A stretch of 64,000 nucleotides of DNA from Malus domestica. Taxonomy: Eukaryota; Streptophyta; Magnoliopsida; Rosales; Rosaceae. The notes under the pieces are model-generated. The model searched no databases, was not told the DNA's origin, and saw only the letters and a list, made by a program, of their open reading frames with translations. Every line of letters starts with the position of its first letter. Position 1 is the first letter of the stretch. Both the position numbers and the translations under genes were made by a program. Of the stretch, positions 1 to 64,000 are shown one piece after another. Where the stretch lies: positions 4,750,001 to 4,814,000 of the forward strand of contig NC_091672.1 of assembly GCF_042453785.1 (NCBI RefSeq), written 5' to 3'.

Positions 1-2394
1 TCCAGCAAGTGGAAGATGTTACACTTCATGAGATATGGTGTTTGATGAAGTGTCTTCTTGGTGGTCCTCAAAGAAGGAGGTGCTACTAGACTCCAGAGAA
101 TTTAGAGAAAAGCTGCAACAGAAGATGGGGGAGCATACTATCCAACTCCAACCAAGTTCAGATGAATCAGGAGATCCAAATGGTGATGATGTTGAACAAA
201 GAGTGGCTCAGAATCCTTGGCAAACTGGCGTGTATCAACAACCAAACGAAGAAGGTGGGCCTAGTGAAACGGAAGAATCAACTCCACAATCTCAACTCTG
301 AAAGTCAACAAGAACATGAAGGCCAAATCCTAAATACGCCAATGCAGCCATAATTGAAGAAGCAACATAGCCTGAGACGTTCGAAGAAGCATCACAGAGT
401 TCTAAGTGGATGACAACTATGAAAGAAGAGATTGATGCACTTCAGCAAAATCAGACTTGGGATCTCGTGCCAAAGCCAAGAGATGTGAAACCCATATCCT
501 ACAAGTGGGTTTACAAGATAAAGCGTCGTCCAGATGGGTCAATTGAGAGGTACAAGGCACGATTGGTAGCTTGTGGTTTCTCTCAACAGTACTGACTAGA
601 CTATGATGAAACGTTTAGTCCAGTGGCGAAACTTACAACAGTACGAGTCCTACTTGCTTTTGCAGCTAACAAAGATTGGAATCTATTCCAGATGGATGTG
701 AAGAATGCTTTCTTGCATGGAAAGTTGGATCGGGAGATCTACATGATGCATCCAATGGGCTTTAAAAGCAAAGCTCATCCTGAGTACGTGTGCAAGTTAA
801 GGAAAACACTCTACGGTTTGAAACAAGCACCAAGAGCGTGGTACGGTAAGATTGCAGAGTTTCTCACACAAAGTGGTTATTCAGTAACACCTGCAGATTC
901 CAGCCTATTTGTCAAAGCCAATGAAGGAAAGCTAGCTATCGTGCTAGTGTATGTGGATGACTTAATCATAACCGGTGATGATGAAGCAGAAATTCTTCGG
1001 ACGAAGGAGAATTTATTAGTCCGTTTCTAGATGAAGGAACTTGGTCAACTCAAGCACTTCCTTGGTTTAGAGGTTGATCGCACACAAGAAGGAATATTTC
1101 TCTGTCAACAGAAGTATGCTAAAGATTTGTTGAAGAGGTTCGGAATGCTCGAATGTAAGCTGATTTCGATGCTGATGGAGCCAAATGCAAAAATGTGTGC
1201 ACATGAAGGAAAAGATTTGGAAGATGCGACGATGTATCGACAATTGGTAGGTAGTCTGATCTACTTAACCCTGACTCGACCTGACATTTCTTATGCAATT
1301 GGTGTGATGAGTCGGTACATGCAAAATCCAAAGAAGCCTCACTTGGAAGCAGTTCGACGAATACTGAGATATGTGAAGAGTACAATTGACTATGATCTTT
1401 TGTACAAGAAAGGTGAAGACTGCAAGTTAGTTGGTTATTATGATGCAGACTTTGCAGGAGATCATGACACCAGAAGATCGACCACTGGGTACGTCTTCAG
1501 AATTGGTTCTGGAGTAGTTTCGTGGTGCAGCAAGAGACAACCAACGATGTCTTTGTCAACCACAGAAGCAGAATATAGAGTAGCAGCAATGACAGCTCAA
1601 GAGAATGCATGGCTGGTACAGTTGATGGGTGATCTACATCAACTAGTAGACTATCCAGTACCATTGTACTATGATAACCAATCGGCAATTCACTTGGCGG
1701 AAAATCCAGTCTTTCATGCAAGAACTAAATATGTGGAGGTACACTATCATTTCATTAGAGAGAAGGTCTTGCAAGAAGAGATTAAGATGAGACAAATCAA
1801 TACAGATGAACAGGTTGCGGACTTGTTCACTAAAGGTTTGAGTACGGGCAAGTTTGAAAAATTTTGTCGTCAACTCAGCATGGAGGAAAGAATGAGCTGG
1901 TGTTAAGGGGGAGTGTTGAAGATCAACACCAGCCTAATTGGTGTTTGTGTTGAAGTGTGATCTTGCCTTGGCCCAAGATGGATCCAGCCCATGGACAAAG
2001 AAAGATCCATATACATGCTAGAGAATTCTAGCAAAGTTCAAGTTGGTGGAAGAGTTTAGAAGAATGGTGAGGTTTCCACCAACATGCAAGATTAGTAGTT
2101 AGTAGAATTATCTAGATATCTCTAGCATGATGATTACATGCTTCTCCAAGGTTCCATCCATGCCTATAAAAGGAGAAGGCATCCACACCATTTGTATCAA
2201 TCAAGCAACCAATCAACCAACCAACCAAGTGAGAGTGAGAAGTAAGAGTAGTCTTGTGAGGAGTGTGAGTGATCTAGAGTTTGTCTCTAGAAAGTGGTGA
2301 GTGTCATTGCTTCTAAAGTTGTATCCTTGTGAGTGTTGTAATATTTTGTGTGTGTAATACAAGTAATTTGTTTACTTGTGTTGTCTCTCCAACA
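1..2394 (+). mobile_element. Ty1/Copia retrotransposon, 3' part
   Basis: The 3' part of a Copia-family LTR element; the 5' end lies outside the window. Translated stretches show the end of the integrase region, the reverse transcriptase ([26 protein letters not shown]) and RNase H ([29 protein letters not shown]). A purine-rich polypurine tract (1905-1913) directly precedes the 3' LTR, which fixes the strand. The coding part is broken in a few places, so this is a fossil, though still readable and probably not very old. The target duplication cannot be checked because the left end is missing. Confidence 0.93.
1914..2394 (+). repeat. 3' LTR of the Copia element
   Basis: A 481-bp LTR that starts TGTTG and ends CAACA, a 5-bp terminal inverted repeat. 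It follows the polypurine tract immediately. It contains a plausible TATA element (CCTATAAAAGG, near 2163) and a CA-rich stretch after it, as in an LTR promoter. No partner LTR is in the window. Confidence 0.85.
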
Positions 2395-2670: not shown

Positions 2671-4880
2671 ATGGCGGCGGCTGAGGAGGACCGAATTGAA
2701 GAAGGGAATGGGGATGCTCTTAAAAAAACGGTTTGGTCCTTTTGCATGTTCGACGTGGCTGTTGAACTAGCGAAGGGGATAAGCTCATATTTATATATAT
2801 TTTACATCAAATTCACTTGTTTTTTCTTAGTTAGTTCCTTATATTTTTTAGCTATTTACTTTTTTTTTTGTGTTTTGTAGGATTTTTCAAGCAAAGAAAA
2901 GAAAAATAGCACAAGTGGGATTTAAGTAACAAATTCGTCAAAATTGTCTGTGCAGATCAACTGACTTTGGAAGCAAGTTTCGAACAGCTCAGAATGAATT
3001 AGAGAATGAGCCTTATATGCTTGGAAAGCTACGAATGTCTATTTTCTGGAGCATTTCACGGATTGTTAATATCATTTTTCTGGAAGAAGTTATGGCCGTT
3101 TTAACACTGAAATGTTCACTGGAGTTTGTGCAGTTTGTAACTGCAATGAAAGCAATAAACCCAATAAATCTAGCAGCCAAGAACAAGCTAACTGACACCT
3201 ATTCAAATATCAGAGGAAAATGAATTAAAGATGACGATTAAGTGGGAGTAATTGGCATAAAGGCTACCCAAAGAGTTACAATTGTTTTACTATTTTCTCT
3301 CACTTATTGTCATCACTAAATTGCTATTAGTGGGGGATTTATGGAGAAGAAAATGATGCAGCAAGAATTGGTTTAAAAGCAGCGTTGGGGGAGGAAATAA
3401 ATGGCAGTTGTTTTTTTACAGAAATAATTTTGAAAAAGAAAAAGAAAAATAAAAAAAAAAGGCTGGAGGTGCAGCGGAAAGGAAGGGAAAAAGGCAAGGC
3501 AGCAATGTTGGGAAAGGAAGGGAGGGAGAAGAAAATCTTGGCATTCTTTTCTTTCGGTTTTATCTTCTCAAACTCATGTCTTTCCTTTGTTTTTATTTAA
3601 GGATTATGTGTAACTAATTTTTAGTAGTTAGGGGTTGTTTTGAAACCCCGAATATGATTGCAAATTTGTTATGACATTTCGTTTGAATTAATTTTATGAA
3701 TGGATGAAAATTGGTTCACTACTTATCTCAATGATAATTCTTTATGTGTTTTCTACAGATGCATACTTAGTAAGCATATCTAGGATTCTAATGCTATGAA
3801 TATGTGTGTGCTTGCACTTGTCGAATGAGGACCTATGTATGTTCTAGAGCAGTACTTGTTAATTGCGATTAACATGTGAACCAATTTCTAGGATAAGTAA
3901 CACAACGCTAGTACTTACGATGCCTTGTGATGACTCAAACTCCTTTCGTTCTTAATGATTTCTATTTGTCAAATCTATGAACGCGCCATTCTAAATTGCA
4001 TGCTAGGGACTAAGTTAAGTTGAAAACGTCATTCTCTTAACATACTACATAAGAAAGAGTAATAGGTTGAGTTCTAACATTGAGCCAACTTGAGCATCTT
4101 GATCCGGAAATAAAAGGAATTTGAATGAAACATAACATGTTTGCATGATTATTTGGTGGTGGATAGCAATTCTCTTAACTCGTTTTTCTTAATTTGTGAA
4201 CTACTTAAAATCTGTTTCTGTCCTGTTTTTGTTCAATTTAATTTAAATAGAAAATCCGCTCCAAAAATCCCAAATATTTGTGTGAGTTTACCTCCGTGTG
4301 TCTAGTGTCTGCATATAAAATTTCGTAGACTTTAGATAAGTGTAAGTCGGTATAATAATTATTTTTCGGTGGCTGGTCAGTAGGACAGCAACCCAGTTTT
4401 TGTGACATTTTAAGTAGTTGGATAAAACAATCTTTTGTGGGAAAGACCCTTATTTTCCAGGGCTACAATTGACAAATCTTAGTGTTAATAAGGAAAATCA
4501 ATAGGACATTTGTGTGCTACTTTGTGGTGTGCTTTTCATCCTATCAGAAGGCTAGAGGCGAGACTAGGATGTTTAAGCACACCTTCAGAGATCTCGAAAA
4601 CATAGTACACAAGTTCAAATCGTGCAAACCGTTCAAAGCATTCGCGGAAGAATCAGTACGTGACCTGCAACTCTCAAATGAGGAATTAGAGAATCTCAGA
4701 GCACAACTGGAGACGGGTTTAGAGCTCGTCGAAAAATGTTCTAAGGTTCATTGGTGGGCTATCTTCAAAAGGTTTGCCTACGCAGAAAACTTGACAGTGT
4801 ATCGGTTTTTAATTGACACAATGCTGAATAAACTGAGAGAGTGGAATGAAAGAACGCGCATGGAGAGACGTGGAATATAA
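2671..4880 (+). pseudogene. RPW8-domain gene, copy A, split by an insertion
   Basis: An orphan RPW8 (CC-R) type coding region. RPW8 domains occur alone in RPW8 resistance proteins and at the N terminus of the helper NLRs ADR1 and NRG1. The signature is clear in 4547-4880: LVEKCSKVHWWAIFKRFAYA matches the family pattern 'lv.KcskvrwW...kk..ya'. The N-terminal part (2671-2776, MAAAEEDRIEEG) is separated from the rest by a 1.77-kb insertion flanked by a GAAGG duplication. The reading phase is the same on both sides of it, so the ancestral frame was about 144 codons. Small compensating indels relative to copy B lie near YAENLTV. No NB-ARC or LRR follows, so it was a stand-alone RPW8 gene or a cut-off NLR start. 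Likely non-functional as it stands. Confidence 0.78.
2777..4546. mobile_element. 1.77-kb LTR-type insertion in the RPW8 gene
   Basis: The segment is absent from copy B (36952-38919) and is flanked by GAAGG at 2772-2776 and 4547-4551, a 5-bp target duplication as made by LTR elements. Its ends read GGATA...TATCA, close to a TG...CA LTR pair. No coding domain is recognisable. A solo LTR of a long-LTR family or a non-autonomous LTR derivative fits best. An intron is unlikely because no GT lies at the left junction. Confidence 0.65.
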
Positions 4881-7800
4881 GTGTGGCAACAGTGTTGACA
4901 ATAAGGATTAGCGCGCATTTGCTTTGGTTTTCTCGGATTGAGGATTGTTTGTATTCGTTATTTTACAATCAGTCTGACAATTAGATGTAGTAGTTACATA
5001 GTTTTCTTGGCATTTTTTTTTTCAGGTTCACATTCGTAATTTTGTGATCAATTTTATTTATCTGCGGACTCTGTAACCTGTAATTATTACACAAATTATA
5101 AACCTTCATCTAAACATCAGATTGTTCGGTGCAATTTTAACCCAAACTGGTATTTAATTTGGCATGTTTGATTATTTCCTTGGTTTAACTCGTTAACTGT
5201 CTCCGTGGATTACTTGAGTCACTAGGAAAGAGTGTAATGCTTGTTACTGATGCTTAAAGAAATATGGAGATCGGTGCTGCAGAGAAAGTTTTAATGAACT
5301 ATAGAGGAGCTAAAGGCATGATATAAAGAAAACTTCTGCGAGTTGAAGTGGCTGATCGATGTCTTGTTTCCTTAAGGCTCTGGAGTTCGGTGTTCAAGTT
5401 TGATAGAAAAATCGCATCTTCCAATTTCCATCAACGACAGAAGCGAAGTTTTTTTTAGTCAAGTCTCAATCTCGTTAAAAATATCCATCAGGAGAAGCGA
5501 AATTTCTTTGTTGACCTCCTAATTTTTTGCGACAACATATGCTATTTCTGGCCTTGCAAACAATGGGCTGCACCAAGGCCTGTGTGGCTATTTTGTTAGA
5601 AGATTTTTTTAGTGGTGTAATTAGGCTGCATGATGTTTTTGTGTTCATTGGACTTCAGAGGAAACTCATCCCCCTCCCCATCTGCTAATATTCCCATTTG
5701 TGGATAGGCCTCTTCCGAGTCTGTGTACCCATCACAATGGAAAAGAATTCGCTCCAAGGCACAATCAAAGGACACAAGGGAATGGAATTGTGGAAGAAAA
5801 AACATTGACAGTACTAGCATAGAGATTAGAATTTTGATTGATTCACGACTTTTACTTGAAGAAAAAGAAGGTATAATTGTATAGCAAGGATAATCAACCT
5901 ACCATCAACTATCCATCTGGTTGCATATTAAGAATTAATGGAAATGCTAGTAGGATCATGGGAACGATCGAGTACATGGCATGGGACAGAACTAGTAATG
6001 TCTGCGCTTCAATCCGTGGTCATTCTACAAAACAATTGTCTCAAAATTTGTGTGTTTTGGTGATACTCTATTGCCATAATGCATGCCACCTAATCCAATC
6101 ATCCAAAGAAACTGGGTATAGTTCAGTGATGAGTATGGTGGTGTCATGCTCTATGATAAGTTCAGTGATGACAAGAGTGGCTGTAGTTCTAAGATTCAAG
6201 GCAGTGTTTAATTAGTTTAAGCCCTGCATATGAGATAGTCTTAGAGTTAAGGGCATCCTTAACGTAGAAAGACTATATAATTATGAACTTTTCTTCTGCA
6301 ACAAGTTAATACTTCTAACTTTAGAGCGTCTAATTTTCACTTGGATTGTCCAGAAGTAGTCAATTGGGGATGACACAGTTCACATCAAGTGAGGCAGTGT
6401 GCTTGTATCTTGTTCTTATATATATGGAGGAGTTTTGGTTCCTTCACTTCTTGTTCTCTGGTTATGTAGTTAGATATGCTGCATTTGCACGCATATTATA
6501 GTTAATCTATTTGGGGAATTTAGAGGAAATGCTGAATCGTGATTAGATCAGAATAACGGTGGAGGGACGCATGCAATATATAGCGGTGGTGAACCTTTTG
6601 CTGCTGGGGATCTTTGGAGTTGCGTGTTTGTAGACTTTGTTAGGCTTAATTTGTGTGAATCTGTAGAGTTTGGGACAGGCTTTGCCTTGAACTTTTTGTC
6701 GTTCTGCTAATCTATTTGTAGTTAGGCGTAGTTCTATTGATCAATTACAAGTGTTATCAAATTGAGCAATTCTGACAATGATATTTTATTATTAAGCTGT
6801 ACAAACATCAACATTAGGGGCCTCTCATCTCCATTGAAGCTCTTGTTTCTTGCTGATGGCAATTGATAAATCCCGGACGAACCTTCTTTTGGAAGTATTT
6901 GTTATGCTATCCGTGTATCCATTTGTCAACAATTCTTTTTTAATCAAGACTCGAAGGGAAAAGTGCTTATCTATTGATGTTGATTTTCCTACCATTTTAT
7001 CTACCTGAGGTTTGTTGCAGAAATCTAAAGAGGGAGAGAGTGAAAGAGAGGGAGAAACGAAAGACAAACCGTGGTGATATTCTACAAATGTTGAAATCCG
7101 GGGGTGATTTTATTGTAAATGTTGATGTGTAACCCTTGAGCTGATATCTTGGAGGCAAAGTCACAAGTTTTGAATTTCATTTTTATATGTTTAATTTCTG
7201 ATGTAATCGGATCATAGTCCAAGTGGCCTCTTCTAGCCCAGGATTTAAGTGATAGATTATGACAAGTGTAATCACCTCATAGGGTGATAGAATCAAAGGC
7301 TAGGATTTAATCTTGGTATAAAGTTGTTAGAGAAGAATCTCACTTCTCTCTCTCTCCTATATTTGGTTATTGGAGTGTGAAATACAATCAGAACCTTCAT
7401 CACTCTCGCATCACCATAGCTGCATTCTCTCTACAATTTTCCTTCTTCCCAAACACTCAAAACCTTCATAAAACTAAATACCAAAAGCTATGAACTCTAA
7501 CAGTAAATTTGCTTGTTATGTTCATCAATGTTTCTACCGAGGGTGTTTATTTTTCTCTCCAAGCATTTTTTGAGCATGTTTATATTGTCATTGTCCCGTT
7601 TGATTTGCAGACGATGGCTGCTGCGGCCGCGCGGAAGCCCCCTTGGCCTTGCCCAAAAAGAAGTCCATAATTTCAAGAGGGTTAAGGAAAAAAATTGTAT
7701 GTGTGTTTGGTTCTCTTTCGGATCACTTTTCTAACACTTAAAAAGTAGAAATGCTTTTGAAGGATATTCAAATTCGGGGTTCATCGTCCATACATATAGA

Positions 7801-8799: not shown

Positions 8800-9333
8800 T
8801 TAATAAAGAGGGTGACGAACGCACATCCCGGTTGCTCTTACCTGTTTCAGCCTATCCGGAATGATCAAATTTGGGCAACCACTAAAATACAACTTCCGGA
8901 GTCTGGGCATGGCTCCTTCCTCCACCCTCCACTCTGATTCAACTGCATAAAGAAGAAGAGATTCCAGATGAGGAAAGCTTCCTGCGAAGGAAACGAGTGG
9001 TTGTGCGCCATGGATCCGAGACACAACCCGGTTGAAAATGTAGAGAACTCTCAAGCACGGAAGCTTCTCCAGCATTTCTACGATCTTGTCCATGATCCTG
9101 CAGCAATAACAATGTGAGGTTTTGCAAGAGAACGAGCTGTGCTGGTAAAAATTCTAATTTCCCAACGACATGCAGGCTGTACAAATTAGGACAGTTTTCT
9201 ACCATGGGCCAGGGTATATCACCACCCATGCGCATCCTAATATGTAGTCTCTAGATTGTCAAATCTGACGCTCTGCTCTTCACCGACATTTATGCAAGAA
9301 CCGCCACGTACTTGTAATTCCTTAACACTGTTT

Positions 9334-9819
9334 TGTAAGAATTTTTTGGGTGAGTATTATCAAACATCAAGAGGATGCAATAATATAAGTATAATGAGCT
9401 GTATTTAAGTTAGACTCGATTAAGGTTTTGTAACCGGACTAAAACCATCTTGGAGGGAAACTTAATTACTCCAATTAAGTTTGAAATAGAGCAGTTATAA
9501 TTTTAGCAATAACTGTTGACAACCACTTCCTTAATGGGTGGAAGCATTTGCAATGTATAAACATGGATGTTTGGTCCCTTTTCTCGATAACACATGGTTC
9601 TCCATTATGTGTTGGCTTGTCCCATTGGAAGTTTGGAAACCTTATAGTAGTTGCAAGAGAAGAGAAGGCTAACATCTTAGTACAACACCATGTCTTCAAG
9701 TGCAGGTTAGTCTAAAGCCTTCTGAATAAATGATATTAAGGTTCATGTTCTTCATGCACTGTCATTAATGATAAACGTAGTCTAGGATTTGGTTGATTCG
9801 ATTTCTAGAATGGCTTACA
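9334..9819 (+). repeat. 5' LTR of the Copia element
   Basis: It starts TGTAAG and ends CTTACA, giving a 6-bp terminal inverted repeat, and is followed by the primer-binding site two bases later. It pairs with 13706-14191. Confidence 0.92.
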
Positions 9820-10268
9820 TGTGGTATCAGAGCCAATCAATTTCAAATCCTAAACTCGAAATTATGCACAAGAATATTGATGAATCTTCCGCTGCAATTT
9901 ATGTAACAAAAATTTTGTTTTTCCTACATAAAATTAATATGACTGCATTAACTTGAACTGCGTGCAGTATAGTTCAAATTATGCTTGATTATTTGATGTT
10001 TACAAGCATAGAACACTGGTTTTCTTTGCTGCAAATTGAATACATGATATCACTCCTGATCTCACATACTTGATTAATTTAGGATTATTTGTTCTTGCTT
10101 AATTTTTAATATGATAATGCGAAAGTATGATGAAACATTATTATGTCATGTTTGAATACTTAAGGAAATTTCCGATACTGATGCTCTAAGTTTAATTTAG
10201 TCTCTACACCAAGGTGTTAGATTAAGTCTAATGCTCTTAGAGTTTCATAATGGGTACTCAAAAGGCAG

Positions 10269-10271
<3 letters not shown>

Positions 10272-10315
<44 letters not shown>
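10272..10315. repeat. (CA)n(TA)n microsatellite
   Basis: A run of CA repeats passes directly into TA repeats inside the Copia element, upstream of the sacsin-like segment. Confidence 0.95.
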
Positions 10316-10316
<1 letters not shown>

Positions 10317-10655
10317 GACAGTTTCTTGCCCAAAGGTGTTACTAGTTCTATAATTTAAGTGTGACAAGGAAATTTTGAATGCTTCTTGATCACAATTTAA
10401 AGGATTTTCAAATCCAAAATGTCACATGATGCTGAAAAATCAGAGGGATTTCGATTTTGTTGTCCACAATCTTATACAAGATTAGTATAAAGTCATAATG
10501 CAAAGTTTATTAAAGATGATAGTGTTTGTGATCTTCAATCCAGAAGTTCCTATACATTTGAGGAGGAAAGTGAACCAAGATGCTCCCATTTACCTTCTAA
10601 CAGTCATACATCAGTTATGTCACTCCCAGTTTTCATCAGAAGTTGGTGACTCTTA

Positions 10656-11735
10656 ATGCAATACGTTGTTTTTGCTAGAGAGTGTAGATCTGTTTCTACC
10701 CTGGGAAAATATCACAAGCTTGTACTATTGGAATATTGTCTTGAAGATTTGCTTGATGTTGATGTTGGAACACATGCATATAACTTGCCTTTGCTTCCAC
10801 TGGCAAATGGTGAATTTCGATCATTGTCGAATACCTCCAAAGGAATTTCATACTTTGTTTGCAATAACTTAGAATACATGTTGCTGCTTCAACATTTATA
10901 TGATAGAGTAATTGACAATAACACTCCCATCAACGTACTAAGTAGACTCTCTGCTATTGCTAAGTCCTCAAAGGCGAATCTTGTTATTTTCAATATTCAG
11001 TGCTTCATTCAGTTTTATCCAAGATTTGTACCTGCTGATTGGAAATACATAAGCAAAGTATTATGGGACCCAGAATGTTGTCATAAACACCTCACTTCAA
11101 CATGGTTTGTGCTATTTTGGAAGTATCTTCGGAATCAGTACGAAGAGTTGTCATTGTTTAGCGATTGGCCCATTTTGCCAACTACTTTTGGCCATTTGTA
11201 CAGAACCTCTAGATAGTTGAAATTGATCGATGCAGAAAAGCTTTCTGACAAGATGAAAGAAATACTTGTTAAAATTGGTTGCAAGATGCTGAACCCTAAT
11301 TATGGAGTTGAACACTCAGATTTATCTCATTATGTAAGTAATGGTAATGTTACAGGGCTTCTATAGTCTCTATATGATGTTGTCTCTTTAAATTATGGTA
11401 GCGTAGTGACATGTTTTGATAATTTGGAAGCCAAATAGAGGAATGAACTTCGTGCATTTTTTTCTTGATTCGAAGTGGTATTTTGGAGACTGTTTGCATG
11501 AGTCTGACATAAGAAGAAGACAAATAGTTTTTATTTAGTGCATACGCTGGCATCCACATCTAGTAGGATTGGTTCTTTTGCAACTAAAGCTTTTAAGGAG
11601 TATGATGTTCACTTGCTACCATGGGGATTAGTTGCAGCTTGCATATCCGATGATTATATAGTGTACATACAAGAGATTGATTATGATATTAGTAATGTAG
11701 ATGATCCACTGACTTACAAAAATGGTAAATGAAGG
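10656..11735 (+). pseudogene. Sacsin-like gene fragment carried inside the Copia element
   Basis: An open stretch at 10656-11216 reads LVLLEYCLEDLLDVDVGTHA, NLPLLPLANGEF, SRLSAIAKSSKANLVIF, PRFVPADWKY and DWPILPTTFGHLYR. I recognise this as the large plant sacsin homologue, a giant protein with repeated HSP90-like ATPase modules. Sacsin-like sequence continues in other frames: SDKMKEILVKIGCK follows, then a part resembling PWGLVAACISDD near 11620. The fragment is 5'- and 3'-truncated, without start or full domains, and is decayed. It lies between the primer-binding site and the reverse transcriptase, in the same orientation as the element, which fits capture of host sequence. The identification rests on remembered family sequence, not a search. 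Confidence 0.75.
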
Positions 11736-13705
11736 GGAGTCACTCATCTTTTTGGAAAGTTGCTATGGATGATTAATGGACTTAAATGGACATAAACAAT
11801 GTGTGGAATTTGGTTGCAGGAACCGCCGATATTAAAGCTATAGATTGTATTGCTACAATGATCTTCATGGCATCAAATGCAAGTTAGTGCCTCTGCTGCT
11901 CAAGCGGTGGATTCTACAAATATAAACCTTTTATGTAAGTTATTAGGGTTAATGAATGGTCATTTAATGTCCATGCACATATTAGGGTTTGATGGTCATG
12001 ATCCTTGATTAAGCCTACAACTAAGTGCACAATTTAACTCGAAACTTCATCAAATGGAAGTTAAAAGAGCATTCTTGAATGGAGGATTAGATGAACATAT
12101 TTTCATGAAACAACCACTTGGATTCATTGAAAGGGGGAAGGAAAATTGGTTATGTAAGCTTAACAAGTCAATTTATAGACTGCAACAGGCTTCAAGACAA
12201 TCGTACAAGAAGTCTGATCAAGTTGTGACTGATTTTGGATTCATTGAGAATAAGATGGACAATTGCATTTACAAAAAGGGTAAAGTCTCATTTCATTTTC
12301 ATGGTACTTTATGTGGATGATACATTACTTGCTAGCACAAATGTTCAAATGCTTACAGAAACCGAAAGTCATGTTATCAATTAGTTTTGACATGAAAGAC
12401 TTGGGAGTGGCTCACTATGTATTAGGGACTGTGATTCGAAGAAAGAGACACCAAAGAGTTCTTGGTCTAGCATAAAATAATTATATCAGTAGAATGTTAA
12501 AGAGGTTTAATATAAAGAATGGTAGTGTTGGAGATGTTTCAATTAGAAAAGAAGATAAACTCTCTACCAAACAATGTCCCATAACTGAATTTGAAGTGCA
12601 ACAAATGAGAGACAACCTTATGCTTCCTTGGTTGACAGTGTAAGGTATACTCAGGTATGCACTAGGCCTGACTTAAAATTTTCACTTAGTGTTTTGGGAA
12701 GGTTTCAATCGAATCAAGGGTTATCTCACTGAAATGTTGGAAAGAAAGTATTAGGTATTTAAAGAAGACACAATCTCATGTATTGTGCTACCACTATGTT
12801 GGTAATCTAGGGTTGACATGTTACACTGATGATGATCTTAGATGATGTATTGATGATAGAATGTCAACTAGTGCTTAAATTTTTATGCTAGCTAGAGTGC
12901 AGTTTCATGGATAAGCAAGAATTAACAAACAAAGGCAGTGTCAACTATGGAGTATGAGTATATTAGATGTTTTGAAGCAACAAGACAAGTAAAAGTAGTA
13001 AGAAGCGTTGAAAGACTAGTGAAGATTTTTTTTGTGATAACACATCTGCAGTGTTCTTTGCTAAGAACAATGAGAGGTCGAAGCATCAAGGTTGATGGAC
13101 ATTAAGTATTTAAAGGTGCAAGATAAAATGAAGGAAAGTATCATAGATAATGAGCGCATCAGCACTCATGATATGATAGCCGATCCTTTTACATGAGCCT
13201 TTTACACGAGTTTTAATAAACATGTTACAAGAATGGGTTTACATGATTCATTTGATTATGTTTGAATGTGGGAGTGAGGCAATCATGATCAATGTCTTAC
13301 TGTTATTTTGATGTCTTATGAATTACTGAATTGATCCAATAATCATTCATTATGAAGGGTACAACATCGAAATATGTAAATTATGTATGTTAATCTTTGC
13401 AAAATTAACATGTTAAGATACTTATATGTTAAAGTGTTTTAGGACCAAAGAAATGTGGGAGTACTGGTAGTATACTATAATGATCCCAAAATAATGATCC
13501 CTCGAGGATAATACTTATATTTTGATATGATTAGTTAGTGATTCTAGAGGACTGATGCAATTATTGATGTCAAGGTCTCTAAAGTTCAACTGACGTATCA
13601 ACTTGATAAGCTATCAAGAGTCATTTTGATATATAACTTAGTGATCACATTTACTTATGTTATTGTAATGAAGATTAAATGTTTGATGTCACTCATGTGG
13701 GAGAA

Positions 13706-14191
13706 TCTAAGAAATTTTTAGGTGATTATTATCAAACATCAATAGGATGCAATAATATAAGTATAATGAGTTGTATTTAAGTTGGACTCGATTAAGGTTT
13801 TGTAACCGGATTAAAACCATCTTGGAGGGAAACTTAATTACTACAATTAAGTTTGAAATAGAGCAGTTATAATTTGAGCAATAACTGTTAACAACCACTT
13901 CCTTAATGGGTGGAAGCAGTTGCAATGCATAAACACTGATGCTTGGTCCCTTTTCTCGGTAACACATGGTTCTCCAATATGTGTTGGCTTGTCCCATTGA
14001 AAGTCTGGAAACCTTATAGTAGTTTCAAGAGAAGAGAAGGCTAACATCTTATTACAACACCATGTCTTCAAGTGCAGGTTAGTCTAAAGTCTACTATATA
14101 AATGATATTAAGGTTCATGTTCTTCATGCATTGTCATTAATGATAAACGTAGTCTAGGATTTGGTTGATTCGATTTCTGGAATGGCTTACA
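13706..14191 (+). repeat. 3' LTR of the Copia element
   Basis: It matches 9334-9819 along its whole length with the same 486-bp size, and is followed directly by the second TGTTT target copy. Confidence 0.92.
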
Positions 14192-15822
14192 TGTTTAACC
14201 CAACAAGCTCTCATGTGTCATTGATTATTAGATTGACTACCGTCTGCAAGTTTCCTCCAATGGCAAATGAGAGTTTGAAGGGTGCAATCTCTAAACTGCT
14301 GGGTAGATACAAATGCCTCAACATTTTCATGTTTGAAAAAATATTCCACATTCTCATCGATGTCTCACCATGAAGATCCAAAGTTTCCAAGCATACCAAA
14401 TTAGCGAAAGATGACGACAACTTGGAAAAATGAGTACCCTTTAAACTCAAAAACTGCAAGTGCATTAGCTCACCAACATTGCTTGTCACTTTGAGTTTTT
14501 GACACATGTATTCTAGCTTTTACACCCTTAGCATTTTTAACTTCTTGGCCAATGACGAAAACAATGTTCTATTGACATCACAGTAACGTTTGCATTTACG
14601 GACACGGTCACGGTCGTGAAAGTAAAACAACGACCTAACATGCTTTTCACTTTTGGTAGAAGCATACATATAGTTTGCCTCGTCCCAATAAATGGTGAGT
14701 CTTCGAACTTTGCCCCCTGTTGCTGGCTTGGTATATGTGTCTCTAGAAAAATTGGAAGTATGCATGAAGTTAACCTCTGTCGCTTTTAATATGCACATGT
14801 CTCGCATTAGATCATGCAAATGACAAGTCTTGACCTTCATGCCAAAGGAATCCATCTGACCGACTTGAACCAAACACAAGCATTCCAACTAAATCAAGCA
14901 CTCGTATGCGACGTCTTCCACCGTTTTACCCGCAGACACCTTCAGCAATCCATAACTGAGTCAATGGTTCCTCCAATATTTCACAATGCTCGGGGAAAAG
15001 AGGCCAAATACAGAAAGTAAGGCTTTAAATGGTGTGGTAAGCTGTCATAACTCAGCCCCATGACCCATGAGACACCCGCATAGTGATGGTCGCCCTTGTA
15101 AGCTCGTTCTTCATACATGCCTCTCCCAACAAATACATCAACGTGCTTGTTCACAATAGTCCACTCCTCAAATGAGATTTTTTTTAGATAGGAGCCCTGC
15201 AAGCATGGTAATGGCTAAGGGCAAAACCTCACATTGCGCAAGTATCTGCTTCCCTAGTTTTTGCTTCATCGAATTGAGATTGGACTTTGAAAATATTACA
15301 AACTATGTTAACCATAACTCTTAGTCCTAAGACATTATATGTTGGCAGTGCACTTTGCTTTATTCATTTTGACACTAGAATTCAAAAAACAAAAAAATAA
15401 AACAAAATGATACATAAGCTTTATAGTCTAGTAACCTATCTCTCTTTCAATCAATAAAACCCGTCACTAAGAAACGCATCTACATCGATTTCAGTTTGAA
15501 GCCCTCATTCATGAGTAACACAATAAATATATAGTTGATGAAATAGAAGAAGGGGAAAATTGTAAAGATTTTATAACAACATGGTGTGTGCTATTATTGC
15601 AAAACTTTTACACACAAGAGTATCTAGTCTCTCTAGGTATAAGACTGTATTCTAAGTTTATCCATAACCTGGTTCAACAAAGCATTTATAACATTGGCTT
15701 AAATGCAATATGAGGAATCGTTTAGCGTAATTTTTCAAACACAAAAAATAATGGGTTGGCAAACCCCTCATACTGCAACAAATAAGAGAACATGGTAAAT
15801 TTTACAAAGCATCAGACCATAC

Positions 15823-16809
15823 TAAGGCTGGGTTCGGTTGGCAAATCGTGCCAAATTCCTTATGCCACATACCAACCACATATACATAATTACCGAAAAT
15901 CAGTTACCGTTAGTCAATCGTCTTCTTGCGGTTACCAAAAATTGATTCAGCCAAAATTATTGGTTGGTTCGGTTGGTAAATGGCATAACCGATGGTTTGC
16001 AAATAAGCTACAAAAACAACAGCTCAAGACCATGCACCAACCCGTAAACAACAAACCAGAAAAGAGAAAAAGAAGTTGTTGCTGCAATTTTTCAATTGAT
16101 GATAAGCCAACACAATCATGACTTAATAAGCCAACAACAATGTCAACAAACATAATCCAAATAGTTATAAGTTCACATACTCAAAAGTCTAACTAATATA
16201 ATTGTCTAAGTTCAATTGTAGCAACTAATGCATAAACAAAAAAAATTCAAAACTCAAAAGTATGGTTTTGGTTATAAGATCCCCTTATTATAATCCCAAA
16301 ACAAATAACTTGTTGTCTTGATAATGCAACATCACTAAAGTAGCATCAACCAATGCATGTGAAATGTTCCATGAATCAATTCTTTGAAGCACTTGGAATT
16401 GATGTTCCTGCTTGAGATGTAGAACCATAAACTATTTCAATTCAAATGTTACAAAAAGAAAAGTATGATTAAAATAAGAAGTAATATTGAATAATAAATT
16501 AAAAATATCAATAAATATTGGATTGAAGTACTATAATTAGAATTAGAAAAAATATAGCAATACTTACATTTTTCCAGTTCTTCACATGTCAAGCATGTAA
16601 AAAATACTAAAAATATCGAAATATAATATATATTGGTAGGTATGGCATACTGCCGGTATATAAAATCCAAAACCAAAGCCATACCATTAATTGTTGGTTC
16701 GGTATAATGCCAACCAATTATGAAAAAATGCCAAAACTATATCATACCATTATGAACCAACATGTATGGTTCGGTCAGTAAATCGGTTTATCATAAAATT
16801 TCCCCCCCT
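15823..16809. mobile_element. 987-bp insertion with 9-bp target duplication
   Basis: AGACCATAC occurs at 15814-15822 and again at 16810-16818, exactly bounding this block inside the CNL pseudogene. A 9-bp duplication is typical of Mutator-like elements. No clear terminal inverted repeat is visible. The interior repeats GGTTCGGT-like words on both strands near each end and is otherwise AT-rich with no coding domain. A non-TIR MULE derivative is the best guess. Confidence 0.65.
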
Positions 16810-18384
16810 AGACCATACATGTCACTTTTATCTACTCTTTATCAAGAAAAATCCATTGCCAAAATGGAATGTGGGAATGTTTATTGATAAGGTTAAATTG
16901 ATTCTAGACCCAAAAACAACCTTACTTATAAGAAAACTAAGCATATTCCACAAACAAAAACCAAAATAATGATAAAACCAGAAAGCACAGTAGAGCTGAG
17001 TGAGGAATTACTTGTACACTCCGTTACTATCCTCTAAAAAAAACTCCTAGCTTTCATCTTCACTTAACAGACGAGATTTGTGATTCAAACCATTTATGTC
17101 AACATAGGGAGCCACTTCTGAGCAACAAGTGGTGAGTAGTGTTTGGCTTTTTATTTTTGCACTTACTGGAAATCTAGATTTCAAAGACTTCTATGCATCA
17201 CAACTCCATACGTCATCAAGCAACACCAAGCATTTCCTTTATAGTTGGATGGTGCAAAGCTTCCAAACTATTTCAGCATTTGTTATTTTCAAAATGTCTT
17301 GTTTTAGCTCATTAGTCCCAGAAGTGAGCCCAATCAGAACATCTTCCCAAACTTTCCTACTTTGACAATGTTGAGTTACACACACCCAAGCAAACCTATC
17401 AAAGTAGCCTCTAACCTTAGCATGATAATAAACACGTTTTGCAAGAGTGGTATTGCCAGACCGTCCCATGCCATAAATGGATACAACTCAGTTGAGTTTT
17501 TCTTTTTTCACCAAATACTCAACCAATGTCTCTTCATCTTTCCCTAATCCAACAAATCCATGTTCAATGACGTGAGGATAAGTTTGCCTCATTTCTGGAG
17601 CCAAGTTGCACCTTTGTACTCCATGCCATTTACTTCCTTTATGCTATAATTTTGCAGGTGCAACCTCATTGCAGAAAGGTCTTCCGTAATCTTCACAGAG
17701 TGCTGCATACATTTTCCCCTCTTAGCGGCAACTTCCATTGCAAAACTTGCAATGACGTCCTCCAAATCATAAGCCATATCTCTTACCTTTGCAACCTAAA
17801 TCTGTACTGATTCGTGCTTTTCTTGTCTTGCATCTGCGTCTTTCAAGAATGCCTTTATAAATAATAGTTTAGTTTTTGCAACTTGAACTTGATGGCTGAC
17901 ATCACTCAAGAACTTCACTTCCCTAAGCATGGGGCCTTTGAGTACTTCGACGACCCTTAAAACGACTACCTCTACCATATTTCTGATCTTCTTGCCAAAA
18001 GAAGGGGAAAACAGACAAAACAAATAAAATCCTTGGGTTAGAAACTGAGAAAGACTAAAATAAAACACACCACAAAAAACAACTTATTCAAGAATTGTAC
18101 TTGTTGAACTCTAAATCAACTCAACTACACTGAGTCTAAAACCAGAGGGAGTCCAACAACGAAGAAGAGAAAGCATATCAAATCGTCATTGTGCACACAT
18201 AACCAGTGGCAAAGCCAGAAATTTAAGACAATGGGGTCAAAAAATAGCTTTCACAAATCGATCATACTTTCATTTATAATTGTCCACAACATGTTCTCAT
18301 ATTTTGAAAACATCGTATTACAACATCATTATTAATAGAATCATATACCTCTTTCTCAAAGTCCACAACCAAACTATCATTCAA

Positions 18385-20627
18385 CTATTGATCACTCATC
18401 CTATTACAATGTGGATTCTTCACAATTTTCATCACCGAAAAAGCTCTTTCAATTGAAACAGTCACAACAGGTAAAATTAATGTCAATTTCACTAGCAAGT
18501 ACACCAAGGGATACTGTCCATCTCTATTGGTCTCCACCAACTTTTGTGAAGGGCTATTAATTGCTTTCTTCATTATGCAAATGCATATCAAAAGTATAAT
18601 TCTTTAGTTCATCTGCAAGAAGTGTGAGCTCCATATCAGAAAAATCTTTTGGATAAAATTGAGCAAGTTGAGCTAACTTTTCAATGTCAAAAATTGAGAA
18701 TGAGTCATCTGGGCTTAAGCATGCAACACAAAGAAGCAACTATGTACTTGTCTCATAAAAATGACCGTTCAACTCTTAAAGTTGCTTATCAATAACATCA
18801 ATAAAGAGATCAACACAGTAGTGATGAAGGTTTGTCAAATTTTGAACTCTACGTCGTGACCTCCCTCGAGTTACAAAGATATCATTCCTATCAGAAATAT
18901 CAATATCATGCTTGCCACAAAAACAATAAACTTTATCAAGCCAAGTATCCCATCCATTATCCATCATTACTTGTAGTTGTTGCTTACATGCTTTGACTAA
19001 GGTCATAGCACTCATTATATTGAGATCTTCATTTTGCAATGCATGTGACAACATATTTGTGATTCCAAATATTTCTTTCATAAAAAAAGACTAGAGACAA
19101 AATCAAAAGATTCAACAAAACATCTGCTTCACCTCTTTGATCAAGACTTACATCATCATCTACAATCATCTCAAGCATCTCAATTACAGAATAAAACATA
19201 TTAATCAAGCTTACCAAGGTACCATAGTGTGAGCCCCAACGTGTATCACTTGCACGTTTAAGACTAGTTTCTTGGTTTAAGCCTTGCCCACTTGGAAGCT
19301 CATAATTTTGAATAGCTTCCATAACTTTGGCTTGTTGTCGTTCTCTAACCATGTTTCGACGTTTACATGATGCTCCGATAATAGTAACAACATTATTAAC
19401 CAAGTACAAAAAAAAAACCAATTTGAATATGATTTTTCGCCACGGCTACAAGAGCAAGTTGAAGTTGATGTGCAAAGCAATGAATATAAAATGCACTTTC
19501 ATTTTCTTTCAAAATAAGTGTCTTAAGGCCATTAAACTCACCTTGCATATTGCTAGCCCCATCATTGTACACACAATCTAGATATGCTTAATCCGTTTAT
19601 AAAGAAGAACTGATCAATTGCCTCTTTAAGTGAAAAAAACAGTGGTATTAGGAACATACTTTATGCCCACAAATCTTTCAACTACTTGTCCGTTGGTATT
19701 CACATAGCGAAGTACAACTACCAATTGCTCCTTGACTGATATATCACGCGATTCATCAACCAAAACAGAAAAGAAAGCATCATCACCAATATCAAACATG
19801 ATAGCATTGGTGGTTTCACATGTTCCTGCATACACAAGATCTTTTTGAATATCATGTGATGTTAACTTGAGATTTTTAGGAGCTTTTTTAAACACCACAT
19901 CTTTAATACCCTCATTATGTTATGCAAGAAACTTCAAAAGCTCAAGAAAATTACCCTTATTGCTTGAATCTTCACTTTCATCATGACCGCAAAAAGCAAG
20001 ACCTTGTCGCAATAAAAAGCGAATGCAATCAAGTGATGCATTCAAATGAGTGCGATAATCAATATGTGTTTGATCCGACTGCTTGTGGACAATTGTTTGA
20101 ATCTGTTGATTCTGATTCATTAAAGCTTCACAATGAAGTAAAGCTTGGTTGTGAGCACTATTAGGACCTCTAACATGAACTCGAAGTCGACATTTTTTCT
20201 TTCAATTATGAAAACCTTTGCTAGTAAAATTGTCATTACCTGCATGGTCTGGAATCTCTAGCTTGAAGAGATAACAACTTCGACAAAAAACAGCATTTTT
20301 GGATATGTTATACTCCAACTAAGTAAGATCGGACCATTTCAGATTGAAATGGCATTGTACTCCTACAAATGACGTATATGGAAATTGATGGGTTCGAGGT
20401 TGAACCAATTCCCTTTGTAAATAAGCTCTACGGACCTGATCTCTAATATTTGGATCATATTTTGATATTTGGAATCGAAGCCCAGGATCTCCTGGAAGAT
20501 TTGCTAGTATACTTTCTATGTTATTTTCATTTGAACTTTCAGGAATATCCGTTGTAGAGGGTGAGAGGTTATCTTTAGTTGATTTTCTCTTAAAATACCT
20601 TTTCATAATTGTTTTAAATAATACCAA
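18385..20627 (-). pseudogene. hAT transposase (ZnF-TTF / DUF4371 / hAT-C), broken
   Basis: Transposase pieces in order from the N terminus: MVLFKTIMKRYFKRKSTKDN and the TTF-type zinc-finger region (RDQVRRAYLQRELVQPRTHQ) at 20319-20627; the DUF4371/RNase H-like region with catalytic-type VDESRDISVKEQ at 19626-19898; ASDTRWGSHYGTL at 19029-19421; and the hAT-C dimerisation motif VSIERAFSVMKIVKNP at 18385-18591. Several frameshifts and stops separate the pieces, so no active product is expected. The family resembles plant 'zinc finger MYM-type protein 1-like' transposases. Confidence 0.9.
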
Positions 20628-21127
20628 AGAGAATCAACAATATAATATAAATTTAATCAAATTAACAACAATTGAGAAGCAGAGTTCATAGATCAATACA
20701 AACCCCACAAACCTTAAGATAAACCCCATTTAACTTTCACATAGCAATAGAAACCCCACAATTTTTTTTTTGCCGGCACCCAGGGTCCCAAACCTCATTC
20801 CCCAAATCTTTTTGTCCACAAACCTTAAGATAAACCCCACAATTTTTTTTGCCGACACCCAGGGTCCCAGACTTCCTTCCCCAATTCTTTTTGTCGACAC
20901 TATCCCTCCAATCCTCATCCTTTCACTGTTAGATTATACCCACGAATTCAAACCCATAAACATGTCTCACAGAGTCATAGTCATTGCAAACCTCATCCTT
21001 CACTCTTCCCAATTGTCCCTCCCCTTTCCCGTTTGTTTTGTTTCTCTTTTGGGTTCAGTTATAAATCCATTCAATTATGCAATTCATATTTCATTTTACA
21101 TGTGATTGAATTTGTCTTATTCCTTTA

Positions 21128-21472
21128 CACTATGTTTGGATGAAGAAATTGATTACTAAGGAATTTTAAAATGATGGAATTTTATTCTATAGAATTTGTG
21201 AATTTTCTTGTTTGGCTAACCTAAAAGAACAATGGAATTGAATACGGAATTTGTTGTTTTTAAACTCTCAATCATAGAAATTGGAAAATGACACCTATTT
21301 ACATGGAATTTAAACTTGGGAATTGGAGGTCCCAAATTCCAAGGTTTTTTTCATTCGGAAATTCTAAATTTCTATGTTTATGAATCCAAACAAGGGAATT
21401 GGTGCATGTCAATTTATAAATTATGTCTTTAATCCAAATTCCAAGTTTATTTCCCTCATCCAAACATAGTGT
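21128..21472. mobile_element. 345-bp MITE nested in hAT copy 1
   Basis: Terminal inverted repeats CACTATGTTTGGATGA and TCATCCAAACATAGTG bound the block, with TTTA on both sides (21124-21127 and 21473-21476). hAT copies 2 and 3 have the uninterrupted empty site (near 28817 and 34784). The short AT-rich non-coding body fits a MITE. Superfamily is uncertain: the duplication reads as 4 bp, close to but not exactly the 3-bp TTA of PIF/Harbinger. Confidence 0.88.
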
Positions 21473-21995
21473 TTATTTTCCATTTGATTGCCTTATCTTT
21501 TTCCTGCTACAACTTCATCGTATGTTAAAATCTTATATTGTTATCATTCATTTTGGTTTAGAATTACAATACAGGAATTAACATGAGTGAATTAATTCAA
21601 TTTTTCTTATGATGGTTTCAAATTTCCCACCCCTCTTTCACTCAGATTCTCCCCTCCCCAAATTTAAAAACCCAAACATATAAATAATGAAATTTCAGAC
21701 AAGAGAAGCTTACCAGAGGAAGGATGCCGAGCCAGAAGAACGCAAGCTGAAGAACAAGAGAGATCGCTGGGTTCTGGTGTGGATTGGGTTCTGGAAAAAG
21801 TCACTTTTCTAATTGCGTGAGAAATGGGTTCTGGGAAAAGTCACTTTTCTGATAGCGTGAGAAAGGAAGAGGGCAGGACTGGCAACTTGAAAAGTTTATT
21901 AAAGGGGTAAAATATTTTTTAAAGGGATAAGTTATAAATCTATTGGGCTCAACGGAGCCCAATGCCCCCACATTGGCTTTGCTAGTGCACATAAC

Positions 21996-23224
21996 AAGTT
22001 ACAAAACTGAAGATCTAACTAGAAACGAAGAGCAATTTCAAACCATTAGCAGACCCAAAACTTCAAGGGTCAACTTTAGACCTCCCTAGATGATTTTAGG
22101 AACTTGTACAGGAAACAAAAAACAAAGAAAGAAGAAGCATATCACTATGAAACATACCCTAATAATCAGTTAAGAAGGGAGAAAAGATGAAAGTGATAGG
22201 GTTTTTTTTTTTTTTTTTTTGGTTGGAAATCGTGATAGGGTTTAGGTTTAAGCCAAAACCCCAGACAAAATGTCAAAACAAAAACCACAATCAGTTAAGT
22301 TCCAGGGAAACATTATCCATATACCAGTCAAGTACAGATCATTTTATGAAATTGGAGCAAAAGGGACCAACGTATTGGGCTTCCCATAGTTCTTTCAAAC
22401 TAATCACTTTCAGTAAGAAAAAAAAAGACTAAACAACCACGAGTGTACAAACACAAACAATAACAAAAATTTGAACCTGCTATAGAACTGGAATGAGATC
22501 GAAACTTACTAAGTTGTCCGGACACCTCATGTATTTGTTATGAATGCTAAAAACCCTTTAAACTAAAATTCAACCCAAACTGTCTACAGTAACAGGGGCA
22601 TGATCATTGACTGATAAGGAACATATTGAATGTCCAGAAGGGTATACAGCAGCACAGCAGATTTTAGATTATCCTCGGGATAAAAGTTCCATCTATCAAT
22701 TAGTGTACAAACAATACAAGATTAACTGATAATAAAATGGGTTAATGGACCATGCAAAGGTAATGTGCATTGAAGTAAAGCTTATGCAAACGGTTTGACA
22801 TCTCTGATAAAGATTTAATTATTCTTTTCTCATACATAGGATAGGGATTTAGTACAAACAATGCCAAAAGAAGAAAGAAAAAACATGCATCTTTGTATGG
22901 GTGTGTGTCTATACTATATAGATTGTGTGAATGAAATAAGAACTGAATTTACTTTGAGGCAATACATACCAATTCCCAGGGTGACAGAAGCTGCTGACGC
23001 AAGATTGAGAACAAAAGATAAGTTTTATAGTAGTTGATCTAAAAACCATAAACCCTAAACCCTTATTATTTTACGAACCAACTCCTCTTGCTCTATAAAT
23101 AGGACAACCCAGTAAGTGAAGTTGGTCTCCTTGAGCAAACGGCTTAAGATAAGAAAAATAAAATCACCCTTATTCCTAAATATTCAAAAAAAAATAAAAA
23201 TAAAAAAAGAAAACAAGTAAGAAA

Positions 23225-27967: not shown

Positions 27968-28301
27968 ATCTTCCAATTTTTCTTCCGCATTGGCGGCATC
28001 GGTACTGAATTTCTTTAAGCTGTAACTGTCACACCCAAAAGACCCCTGATTAAATTATTAATCCTCAATGTATTATGCAGGAACGAGTGACTGGCAGATG
28101 CAACTAAATCACCAAAATTTGATCCGAAAATGGCAAATAAATTTGTGAAAAATGACCTGAAATACTTTGTAACGCCAACAAATTGAGCTAAAGCAAAAAA
28201 ATCAAACTTTTAACTCCCAGAAGAGAAACAAATTAAACGACGGAGCAGCGAACTGCCAAAAAAATAAAAAATAAAATAAAAATATGATATGAAATTCTAA
28301 G
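27968..28301. other. SUVR upstream flank
   Basis: The WIYLD reading frame stays open upstream of the first ATG to about 28055, where TTTAATCAG could be a splice acceptor. An upstream exon or 5' UTR intron is therefore possible. hAT copy 2 begins at 28302, about 335 bp before the ATG. Confidence 0.4.
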
Positions 28302-31300: not shown

Positions 31301-31762
31301 TTATCCAAAAGATTTTTCTGACATGGAGCTCACACTTCTTGAAGATGAACTGAAGAATTATATTTTTATATATGTTTGCATAATGAATTTTCTGCGTTGA
31401 AAGGAATTAATAGCCTTGCACAAAAGTTGGTGGAGACAAAGAGGGATAGACAGTATCCCTTGGTGCACTTGCTAGTGAAATTAGCATTAATTTTACCTGT
31501 TGCGACTGCTTCAGTTGAAAGAGCTTTTTCAGTGATGAAAATTGTGAAAAATCCACATTGTAATAGGATGGTGATCAATGGTTGAATGATAGTTTGGTTG
31601 TGTAAATTGAAAAAGAGGTATATGATTATATTAATAATGATGTTGTAATACGACGTTTCCAAAATATAAGAACACATCGTGGACAATTATAAATGATAGT
31701 ATGATCGATTTTTGAAAGCTATTTTTTGACCCCATTGTCTTAAATTCATGGCTCCTCCACTG
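28302..31762 (+). mobile_element. hAT transposon, copy 2
   Basis: A 3461-bp sibling of copy 1 on the opposite strand. Its left end is CACTAGCGGAGCCAATGCG and its right end TGGCTCCTCCACTG. The flanks ATTCTAAG (28294-28301) and CTTTTAAG (31763-31770) match at 6 of 8 positions, a decayed 8-bp target duplication. About 1 kb of leader precedes the transposase and contains a 113-bp tandem duplication (units starting near 29046 and 29159, each with GGGACCCTGG). It forms a large inverted repeat with copy 3. Confidence 0.92.
29372..31585 (+). pseudogene. hAT transposase of copy 2, broken
   Basis: Pieces read N to C: MERYFKIKSTKDN (29372), TTF finger (29566-29901, FDDFPTWLEYSISKNVVFCR), DUF4371 with VDESRDISVKEQMA, CYDGASNMQGEFN and YIHCFAHQLQLALVAMAK (30181-30705), ASDTRWGSHYGTL (30702-30911), DAWLDKVSCFCGKHDMDI (30911-31291) and hAT-C TASVERAFSVMKIVKNP (31376-31585). 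The acidic catalytic residues of the DES and CYD motifs and the ERAFS glutamate are still present, but several frameshifts and stops interrupt the gene. It is the best preserved of the three over the catalytic part. Confidence 0.9.
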
Positions 31763-32152
31763 CTTTTAAGTGACTGTCACTGTCATCAAATCATTACGAA
31801 CGATACCCTAATAATCAATTAAGGGGAAAGAGAGAGATAGAGAGAGAGAGAGAGAGAAAGTACCTTCCAAACTTCCTCCATCAGCAACGTGGGCGAAAGG
31901 AGTTTGACAATACAACCGTCATCGTAATGAGCTAAAGACAAGAACTTGATAAAGCTGCTTCTTACCTCTAACTACAAGTACAAGCCAACGACAACCTAGT
32001 ACTTTTAAAACTTAAGGAATATTGAGAATGGGCTCTTAGGGATTCGGGCTGTTCAAATGATTTAAGTATGTGCATGTGGTACAATACTTTAGTGGATTTA
32101 AGTATGGGCTCTTAGGGATTCGGGTTGTTCAAACGACAACCTAGTACTTTTA
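31763..32152. repeat. Spacer between the hAT inverted arms; duplicated SUVR 3' flank
   Basis: This segment matches, with deletions, parts of 22150-22185 and 23250-23580, including CAAGAACTTGATAAAGCT and GTGCATGTGGTACAATACTT. It also has a local duplication of the phrase around GGGCTCTTAGGGATTCGGG (about 32030 and 32107). It looks like the downstream flank of a lost second SUVR copy, now the loop of the hAT palindrome. Confidence 0.75.
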
Positions 32153-35298: not shown

Positions 35299-35517
35299 CG
35301 TGTATATATATCCCACTCTAGGGCTCTCCAATCTCTTCCTTTATATCCTCTTCTCCAAGCACAAACCTACCGAAGATCGCAAACTCCATAAACTCGCTCC
35401 ATTTTTGCTAGAGATATGCCAGGCATTATCAGTACCGCTCTTCCAAATCAAAAACATGTTTAAAGAAGACTTGTTATCAAGAAAATAGAGAAACCAAATT
35501 CCCGGCTGGTCTCGTTT

Positions 35518-56161: not shown

Positions 56162-56308
56162 GCTTCCCCTTCAAATTGTATTCTGCGCGGGATTTCAGTC
56201 TTAAACTCTTAATTAGCATAGATCGACACGAAAATAAGGAGGAAGAAAGCAGCGGATACGATGATAACTAAGAGCTTAATAAATTAATATTTTACATACT
56301 AAACAAAG

Positions 56309-62271: not shown

Positions 62272-64000
<1,729 letters not shown>

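What the first reader, a model, noticed from the sequence alone, without database searches (positions are those of the whole stretch)
10656..11735. Host sacsin-like segment carried inside a Copia element
About 1.1 kb of recognisable sacsin coding sequence lies between the primer-binding site and the reverse transcriptase of an element with paired LTRs and target duplication, in the element's own orientation. It occupies the place of the usual gag to integrase part. Gene capture by LTR elements is known but uncommon, and a sacsin donor is unusual.
Basis: partly seen in the sequence, partly recalled or inferred. Interest (0 to 1): 0.75.

Follow-up and report, generated by a model that had tools for sequence, protein, structure and literature searches.

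The report
Sacsin gene pieces inside a retrotransposon
A broken retrotransposon in what looks like a plant genome appears to carry two pieces of the host's very large sacsin gene, joined in swapped order, where its own missing genes would be; picking up host gene pieces in this way is well known in plants, so this is one more, somewhat scrambled, example.

Summary
A Ty1/copia-type element (9334-14191) has 486-base LTRs (458/486 identical), TGTTT target duplications and a primer-binding motif. The only Pfam family detected in it is the reverse transcriptase RVT_2. Between leader and pol lie about 0.98 kb that resemble plant sacsin. The reference was a plant sacsin recalled from memory, because no plant database is held; searches confirm only its N-terminus as sacsin. 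The sacsin part is two pieces: A (10671-11459, recalled residues 536-797) followed by B (11511-11654, residues 302-349). B lies upstream of A in the recalled protein, so the order is swapped. Bases 11655-11735 show no sacsin match. The element probably sits in a broken NLR-type gene. Its pol is more decayed than LTR divergence predicts; the sacsin part is not significantly so.

Best explanation: a non-autonomous element took up sacsin RNA by template switching during reverse transcription and was mobilised in trans. Such capture is well documented in plants, so this is a new member of a known kind. The swapped order is the unusual point and leaves room for a circular or tandem donor. Donor gene, intron loss and other genomic copies could not be tested.

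The parts
9329..9333 (.). target site duplication TGTTT, left copy
9334..9819 (+). 5' LTR, 486 bp
   Evidence: 458/486 identical to the 3' LTR
9822..9833 (+). primer-binding site TGGTATCAGAGC, two bases after the LTR; the initiator-tRNA-Met motif is recalled
   Evidence: sequence
9834..10670 (+). leader without a recognised coding part; contains a CA/TA simple repeat
   Evidence: no Pfam match in three open pieces searched; no match to the two recalled sacsin repeats
10671..11459 (+). sacsin piece A (recalled residues 536-797); three in-frame stops; frame changes near its 3' end
11464..11510 (+). probable continuation of piece A in the next frame, judged by eye only (BLAST did not report it)
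   Evidence: no BLAST match for 11461-11520
11511..11520 (+). A/B join in a purine repeat AAGAAGAAGA; possible microhomology (inferred)
11511..11654 (+). sacsin piece B (recalled residues 302-349), upstream of A in the recalled protein
11655..11842 (+). copia part between integrase and RT and the start of RT; 11732-11842 matches the in-window copia copy
   Evidence: 32% over 37, E 0.003; 11655-11731 assigned by position only
11843..12014 (+). stretch that should be the N-terminal RT part but does not match the comparator; origin unknown
   Evidence: score 16, 247 of 500 shuffles as high
12015..13259 (+). remains of reverse transcriptase and RNase H, broken by frame changes and stops
13697..13705 (+). 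purine-rich tract next to the 3' LTR (by eye)
13706..14191 (+). 3' LTR, 486 bp
14192..14196 (.). target site duplication TGTTT, right copy
14214..17487 (-). remains of an NLR-type gene right of the element: LRR piece 14214-14519, NB-ARC piece 17242-17487
8803..9333 (-). LRR part left of the element; an open frame crosses the join of the flanks

Best explanation
A non-autonomous Ty1/copia-type element. Its RNA was packaged together with sacsin mRNA. During minus-strand synthesis the reverse transcriptase switched from the element's pol region to sacsin RNA (piece B), switched again within or between sacsin RNAs (piece A), and returned to the element's leader, so that gag to integrase was lost and replaced. 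The product was mobilised in trans by a helper's proteins and inserted into an NLR-type gene. It has since decayed and has no evident function. Shown: LTRs, target duplication, primer-binding motif, RVT_2, two sacsin-like pieces and their order relative to a recalled protein, excess decay of pol. Inferred: RNA origin, template switching, mobilisation in trans, replacement in one step.
For: Paired LTRs, target duplication, primer-binding motif. RVT_2 only, no gag, protease or integrase family in 17 of 19 plus-strand open pieces of at least 42 aa. Sacsin-like pieces A and B by tblastn with a recalled plant sacsin, far above 200 shuffles. A recalled second repeat, a paralogous control, also matches piece A but weaker (29.6%, E 6e-31), and does not match B, so both pieces fit the first repeat best. 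No target-duplication-like repeat beyond chance around the sacsin part (longest 6 bases; 53% of random pairs as long) and no A-run of 8 or more in the element. Pol shows 8 stops against 1.55 expected from LTR divergence (P 2e-4), sacsin 3 against 1.27 (P 0.14), so pol was probably dead before the last jump. Published precedents: template switching and transduction in plant LTR elements, including Bs1 (PMC13317346, passages); about 72% of LTR-borne NLRs in pepper lie in non-autonomous elements without gag/pol coding (PMC5664825, passages).
Against: The sacsin reference is recalled, not fetched; the matching part of it could not be validated. No donor gene, so intron loss, the mark of an RNA origin, is untested. 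The swapped order needs an extra switch, or another kind of donor. No second copy of the element in the window, so whether the captured state was ever amplified is unknown. The excess of frame changes in pol over sacsin is not significant (P 0.27). The decay test uses present codons as proxy and slightly overlapping pieces.
Confidence: 0.6

Rival explanations
1. Later DNA-level patch: sacsin DNA pieces were put into an already integrated element during repair of a deletion that removed gag to integrase (filler DNA by end joining). The two pieces in swapped order would be two fillers.
For: Repair of breaks with scrambled filler is a general plant process (recalled). The purine repeat at the A/B join allows microhomology. 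The RT region has a second unmatched stretch, 11843-12014, so the interior has been patched more than once.
Against: Both pieces lie in the element's own orientation and exactly fill the place of the missing genes. Nothing decisive: this rival is hard to exclude without sister copies.
Confidence: 0.2
2. Capture from a donor in which A already preceded B: a circular (back-spliced) sacsin RNA or a tandem duplication in a sacsin gene or pseudogene. A followed by B is one continuous stretch of a circle that spans recalled residues 302 to about 815, so two switches suffice instead of three.
For: Order and extents of A and B relative to the recalled protein. At5g23110, the Arabidopsis sacsin-like gene (that identity is recalled), is called multi-exon (PMC6338467, passages), so exon ends could exist there.
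Against: No exon borders known at the join; the reading frame changes at the join. Circular RNA is rare compared with mRNA (recalled). My search for captured circular RNA in LTR elements listed no clear precedent among the 10 of 55 papers shown (listing only).
Confidence: 0.12
3. The stretch is not sacsin but another protein, and the likeness comes from a reference recalled with the window in view.
For: No database hit supports the name: no Pfam, no PDB chain (best was an exportin chain at E 0.34), no relatives in three collections.
Confidence: 0.04

Closest known systems
Maize Bs1 (LTR element with pieces of three host genes)
   Same: non-autonomous LTR element with several host gene fragments inside (PMC13317346, passages)
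   Different: here two pieces of one gene in swapped order; donor is sacsin-like; no evidence of expression; the primary Bs1 paper was not held
LTR-captured genes of rice, sorghum and maize (672, 1,343 and 424)
   Same: host gene sequence between the LTRs; many are pseudogenes (PMC3726574, passages)
   Different: a fragment with scrambled order in a copia-type element with a pol remnant; intron loss untested
LTR-borne NLR genes of pepper (retroduplication)
   Same: host genes within non-autonomous LTR elements (PMC5664825, passages)
   Different: here the NLR-type gene is the insertion target, not the cargo
Complex LTR elements made by abnormal template switching in Triticeae
   Same: proposed mechanism (PMC1950507, abstract and outline)
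   Different: there two retroelement parents fuse; here the second template would be a host mRNA

Membership tests
Ty1/copia LTR retrotransposon | paired LTRs with target site duplication | tested here: met
   486-bp LTRs, 458/486; TGTTT on both sides. The 5' LTR starts TG and both end CA; the 3' LTR starts TC
Ty1/copia LTR retrotransposon | primer-binding site next to the 5' LTR | tested here: met
   TGGTATCAGAGC from 9822; the tRNA assignment is recalled
Ty1/copia LTR retrotransposon | copia-type reverse transcriptase (RVT_2) | tested here: met
   E 1.1e-21, profile positions 68-157 of 244; weaker pieces. The N-terminal part is not recognisable
Ty1/copia LTR retrotransposon | gag, protease and integrase, with integrase before RT | tested here: not met
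   none in 17 of 19 plus-strand open pieces of at least 42 aa; 2 alternative-frame pieces and 14 minus-strand pieces not searched. So a defective derivative, not a complete member
sacsin | sequence similarity to plant sacsin | tested here: inconclusive
   strong, but only against recalled sequence
sacsin | SACS (Nov/HSP90-like) domain | tested here: not met
   no Pfam match in pieces A or B; in the recalled protein both pieces lie after the SACS domain (residues 13-252). A fragment, not a sacsin gene
LTR-mediated retro-captured gene | intron loss relative to the donor | not testable with these tools
   no host genome; no donor gene
LTR-mediated retro-captured gene | cargo between the LTRs, moved together with the element | tested here: inconclusive
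   it lies between the LTRs; whether it was there before insertion needs sister copies; none in the window
non-autonomous LTR element | no working proteins of its own | tested here: met
   7 frame changes and 8 stops across the aligned pol pieces; no gag/PR/INT families found

The most novel reading that the evidence does not exclude
The element copied one continuous stretch of a circular (back-spliced) sacsin RNA across its back-splice join, which would explain the swapped order with one entry and one exit. It would be a fossil of circular RNA taken up by an LTR retrotransposon.
Probability: 0.08. Interest if true: 0.6.

Novelty: new member of a known kind. Interest (0 to 1): 0.27.

Why it matters
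Captured gene pieces show what RNA ends up in retrotransposon particles and how chimeric sequences arise. This case adds a piece of one of the largest plant proteins and shows two pieces of one gene in swapped order, which a simple read-through (transduction) model does not give. If the join proved to be a back-splice join, it would be a rare DNA record of circular RNA capture. Otherwise it is an ordinary, decayed pseudogene fragment.

Tried and rejected
Tried without result: own-genome search (no genome held); relatives of piece A in viral contigs, prokaryote genomes and plasmids, and of the RT piece in viral contigs (26, 5 and 42 pattern matches, none confirmed); Pfam and PDB for piece A (one exportin chain at E 0.34, taken as chance); AlphaFold of piece A from one sequence (pLDDT 36, not used further, no fold search run); PDB for the RT piece (none). 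Papers: sacsin with retrotransposon and plant, 7 papers; with pseudogene and transposon, 3; with LTR retrotransposon and plant, 2. From these lists I opened passages of two: in one the 'sacsin' match is the name SacSINE1, in the other a plant genome's sacsin-like gene. No listing shows a sacsin capture; supplements were not searched.

Considered and rejected: an in-frame sacsin-pol fusion protein. B's frame stays open to 11729, but the nearest confirmed pol match (11732-11842) is in another frame, and A carries three stops. Considered and rejected: collinear order with B from the second repeat. The recalled second repeat does not match B; a third repeat was not tested.

A first version of the decay count used a wrong frame for one short piece and gave 6 stops; one search replaces it.

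Full report
Element. The window holds a Ty1/copia-type LTR element at 9334-14191 on the plus strand. The two 486-bp LTRs are identical at 458 of 486 positions, with 28 substitutions (15 transitions, 13 transversions) and no indel within the LTRs; TGTTT stands on both sides and a primer-binding motif starts two bases after the 5' LTR. The Kimura distance is 0.060, which is about 2 to 12 million years for rates of 1.3e-8 to 2.5e-9 per site and year (rates recalled; arithmetic). A purine-rich tract precedes the 3' LTR. No other copy of the element is found in the window by blastn at E 0.01.

What it codes for. Of 33 open pieces of at least 42 aa that overlap the interior, 19 are on the plus strand; 17 of these were searched in Pfam. 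Only RVT_2 appears: 12009-12317 (E 1.1e-21), and weakly 12229-12381 (E 0.054) and 12284-12472 (E 0.15). Two alternative-frame pieces over the sacsin part and 14 minus-strand pieces were not searched. A second copia copy in the same window, 371-1903, served as comparator. It matches 11732-11842 (32% over 37, E 0.003) and 12015-12281 (37% over 89, E 6e-18), and weaker pieces on to 13259. So pol is present from about the integrase-RT boundary onward. The stretch 11843-12014, where the comparator has the N-terminal RT part, does not match it beyond chance (247 of 500 shuffles score as high).

Sacsin. No plant database was available. I used a plant sacsin recalled from memory. Its N-terminal part is genuine: Pfam SACS E 2.9e-89 over residues 13-252, PDB sacsin chains E 5e-45 to 1e-43. 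The matching parts lie beyond that and could not be validated, and I recalled them after seeing the window; this is the weakest point of the case. With it, tblastn finds two places in the 64-kb window at E below 1: A, residues 536-797 to 10671-11459, 54% over 263, E 1e-79; and B, residues 302-349 to 11511-11654, 67% over 48, E 2e-15. The best score in 200 shuffles was 28.5 bits against 273 and 72. A recalled second sacsin repeat matches A only, at 29.6% and E 6e-31 (shuffle maximum 30.4 bits, observed 122). This is what a paralogous repeat should give, and it places both pieces in the first repeat. By eye, A continues in the next frame to about 11510, but BLAST did not report that part. Papers support that plants have such a gene: a 4,769-aa sacsin-like protein in Chenopodium pallidicaule (PMC6858295, passage).

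Swapped order. In the recalled protein B (302-349) lies upstream of A (536-797); in the element A comes first. The join falls in a purine repeat at 11511-11520 and changes the reading frame. A simple read-through of neighbouring DNA does not give this order. Three switches between templates do; so would two switches on a circular or tandem donor; so would two repair fillers.

Order of events. Taking half of the LTR distance as the substitution load since insertion, 1.27 new stops are expected in the 327 sacsin codons and 3 are seen (P 0.14); in 380 pol codons 1.55 are expected and 8 are seen (P 2e-4). Frame changes: 7 in 1,528 bases of pol against none in 972 lineage bases of LTR (P 0.048); sacsin 1 in 841, not different from either (P 0.46 and 0.27). 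So pol was probably dead before this insertion, which needs help in trans. The sacsin part could have been captured not long before; an older capture is not excluded. No repeats that look like a target duplication of the sacsin part itself exceed chance (longest 6; 53% of random pairs), and there is no A-run of 8 or more.

Place. The element probably lies in a broken NLR-type gene on the minus strand: an LRR piece to its right (LRR_14 positions 40-104, 37.6 bits) and one to its left (positions 231-293, 29.9 bits), both below Pfam's cut-off of 40, and an NB-ARC piece further right (49 bits, cut-off 23.5). Joining the flanks with one TGTTT gives an open frame of 36 codons across the join, starting six codons before it, with stops further out. 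The LRR model positions between the two flanks are not all accounted for.

Known or new. [quoted passage not shown] 1,398 to 3,898 genes inside LTR elements in six species (PMC5664825, passages); mechanisms and Bs1 reviewed in PMC13317346 (passages and outline); template switching in PMC1950507 (abstract and outline). In three searches naming sacsin no listing reports a sacsin capture. This is a new member of a known kind with an unusual internal order. I found no sign of a function.

Noticed in passing
window 371-1903 (+): A second, unrelated copia-type pol remnant in the same window; its 1031-1903 part is open for 291 aa and covers the end of RT (RVT_2 E 1.4e-5, below the Pfam cut-off). Used here as comparator.
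   Followed up: partly
window 11843-12014 (+): About 170 bases inside the element's RT that do not match the comparator; possibly another foreign piece, origin unknown.
   Followed up: partly
window about 18200-22000, 28300-31800, 32000-35300: Three copies, some inverted, 86-97% alike in the aligned pieces, of a region with DUF4371 (looks like hAT-type transposase, recalled).
   Followed up: no
window 4547-5890 and 37121-38918: A direct duplication, pieces 92-97% alike, about 32.5-33 kb apart.
   Followed up: no
window 8803-17487 (-): Remains of an NLR-type gene (LRR, NB-ARC) with many stops, apparently split by the element.
   Followed up: partly
window 53012-56170 (-), 35464-36021 (+), 62257-63492 (+): A long open PPR protein, a MADS-type (SRF-TF) open frame and a protein kinase open frame.
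   Followed up: no
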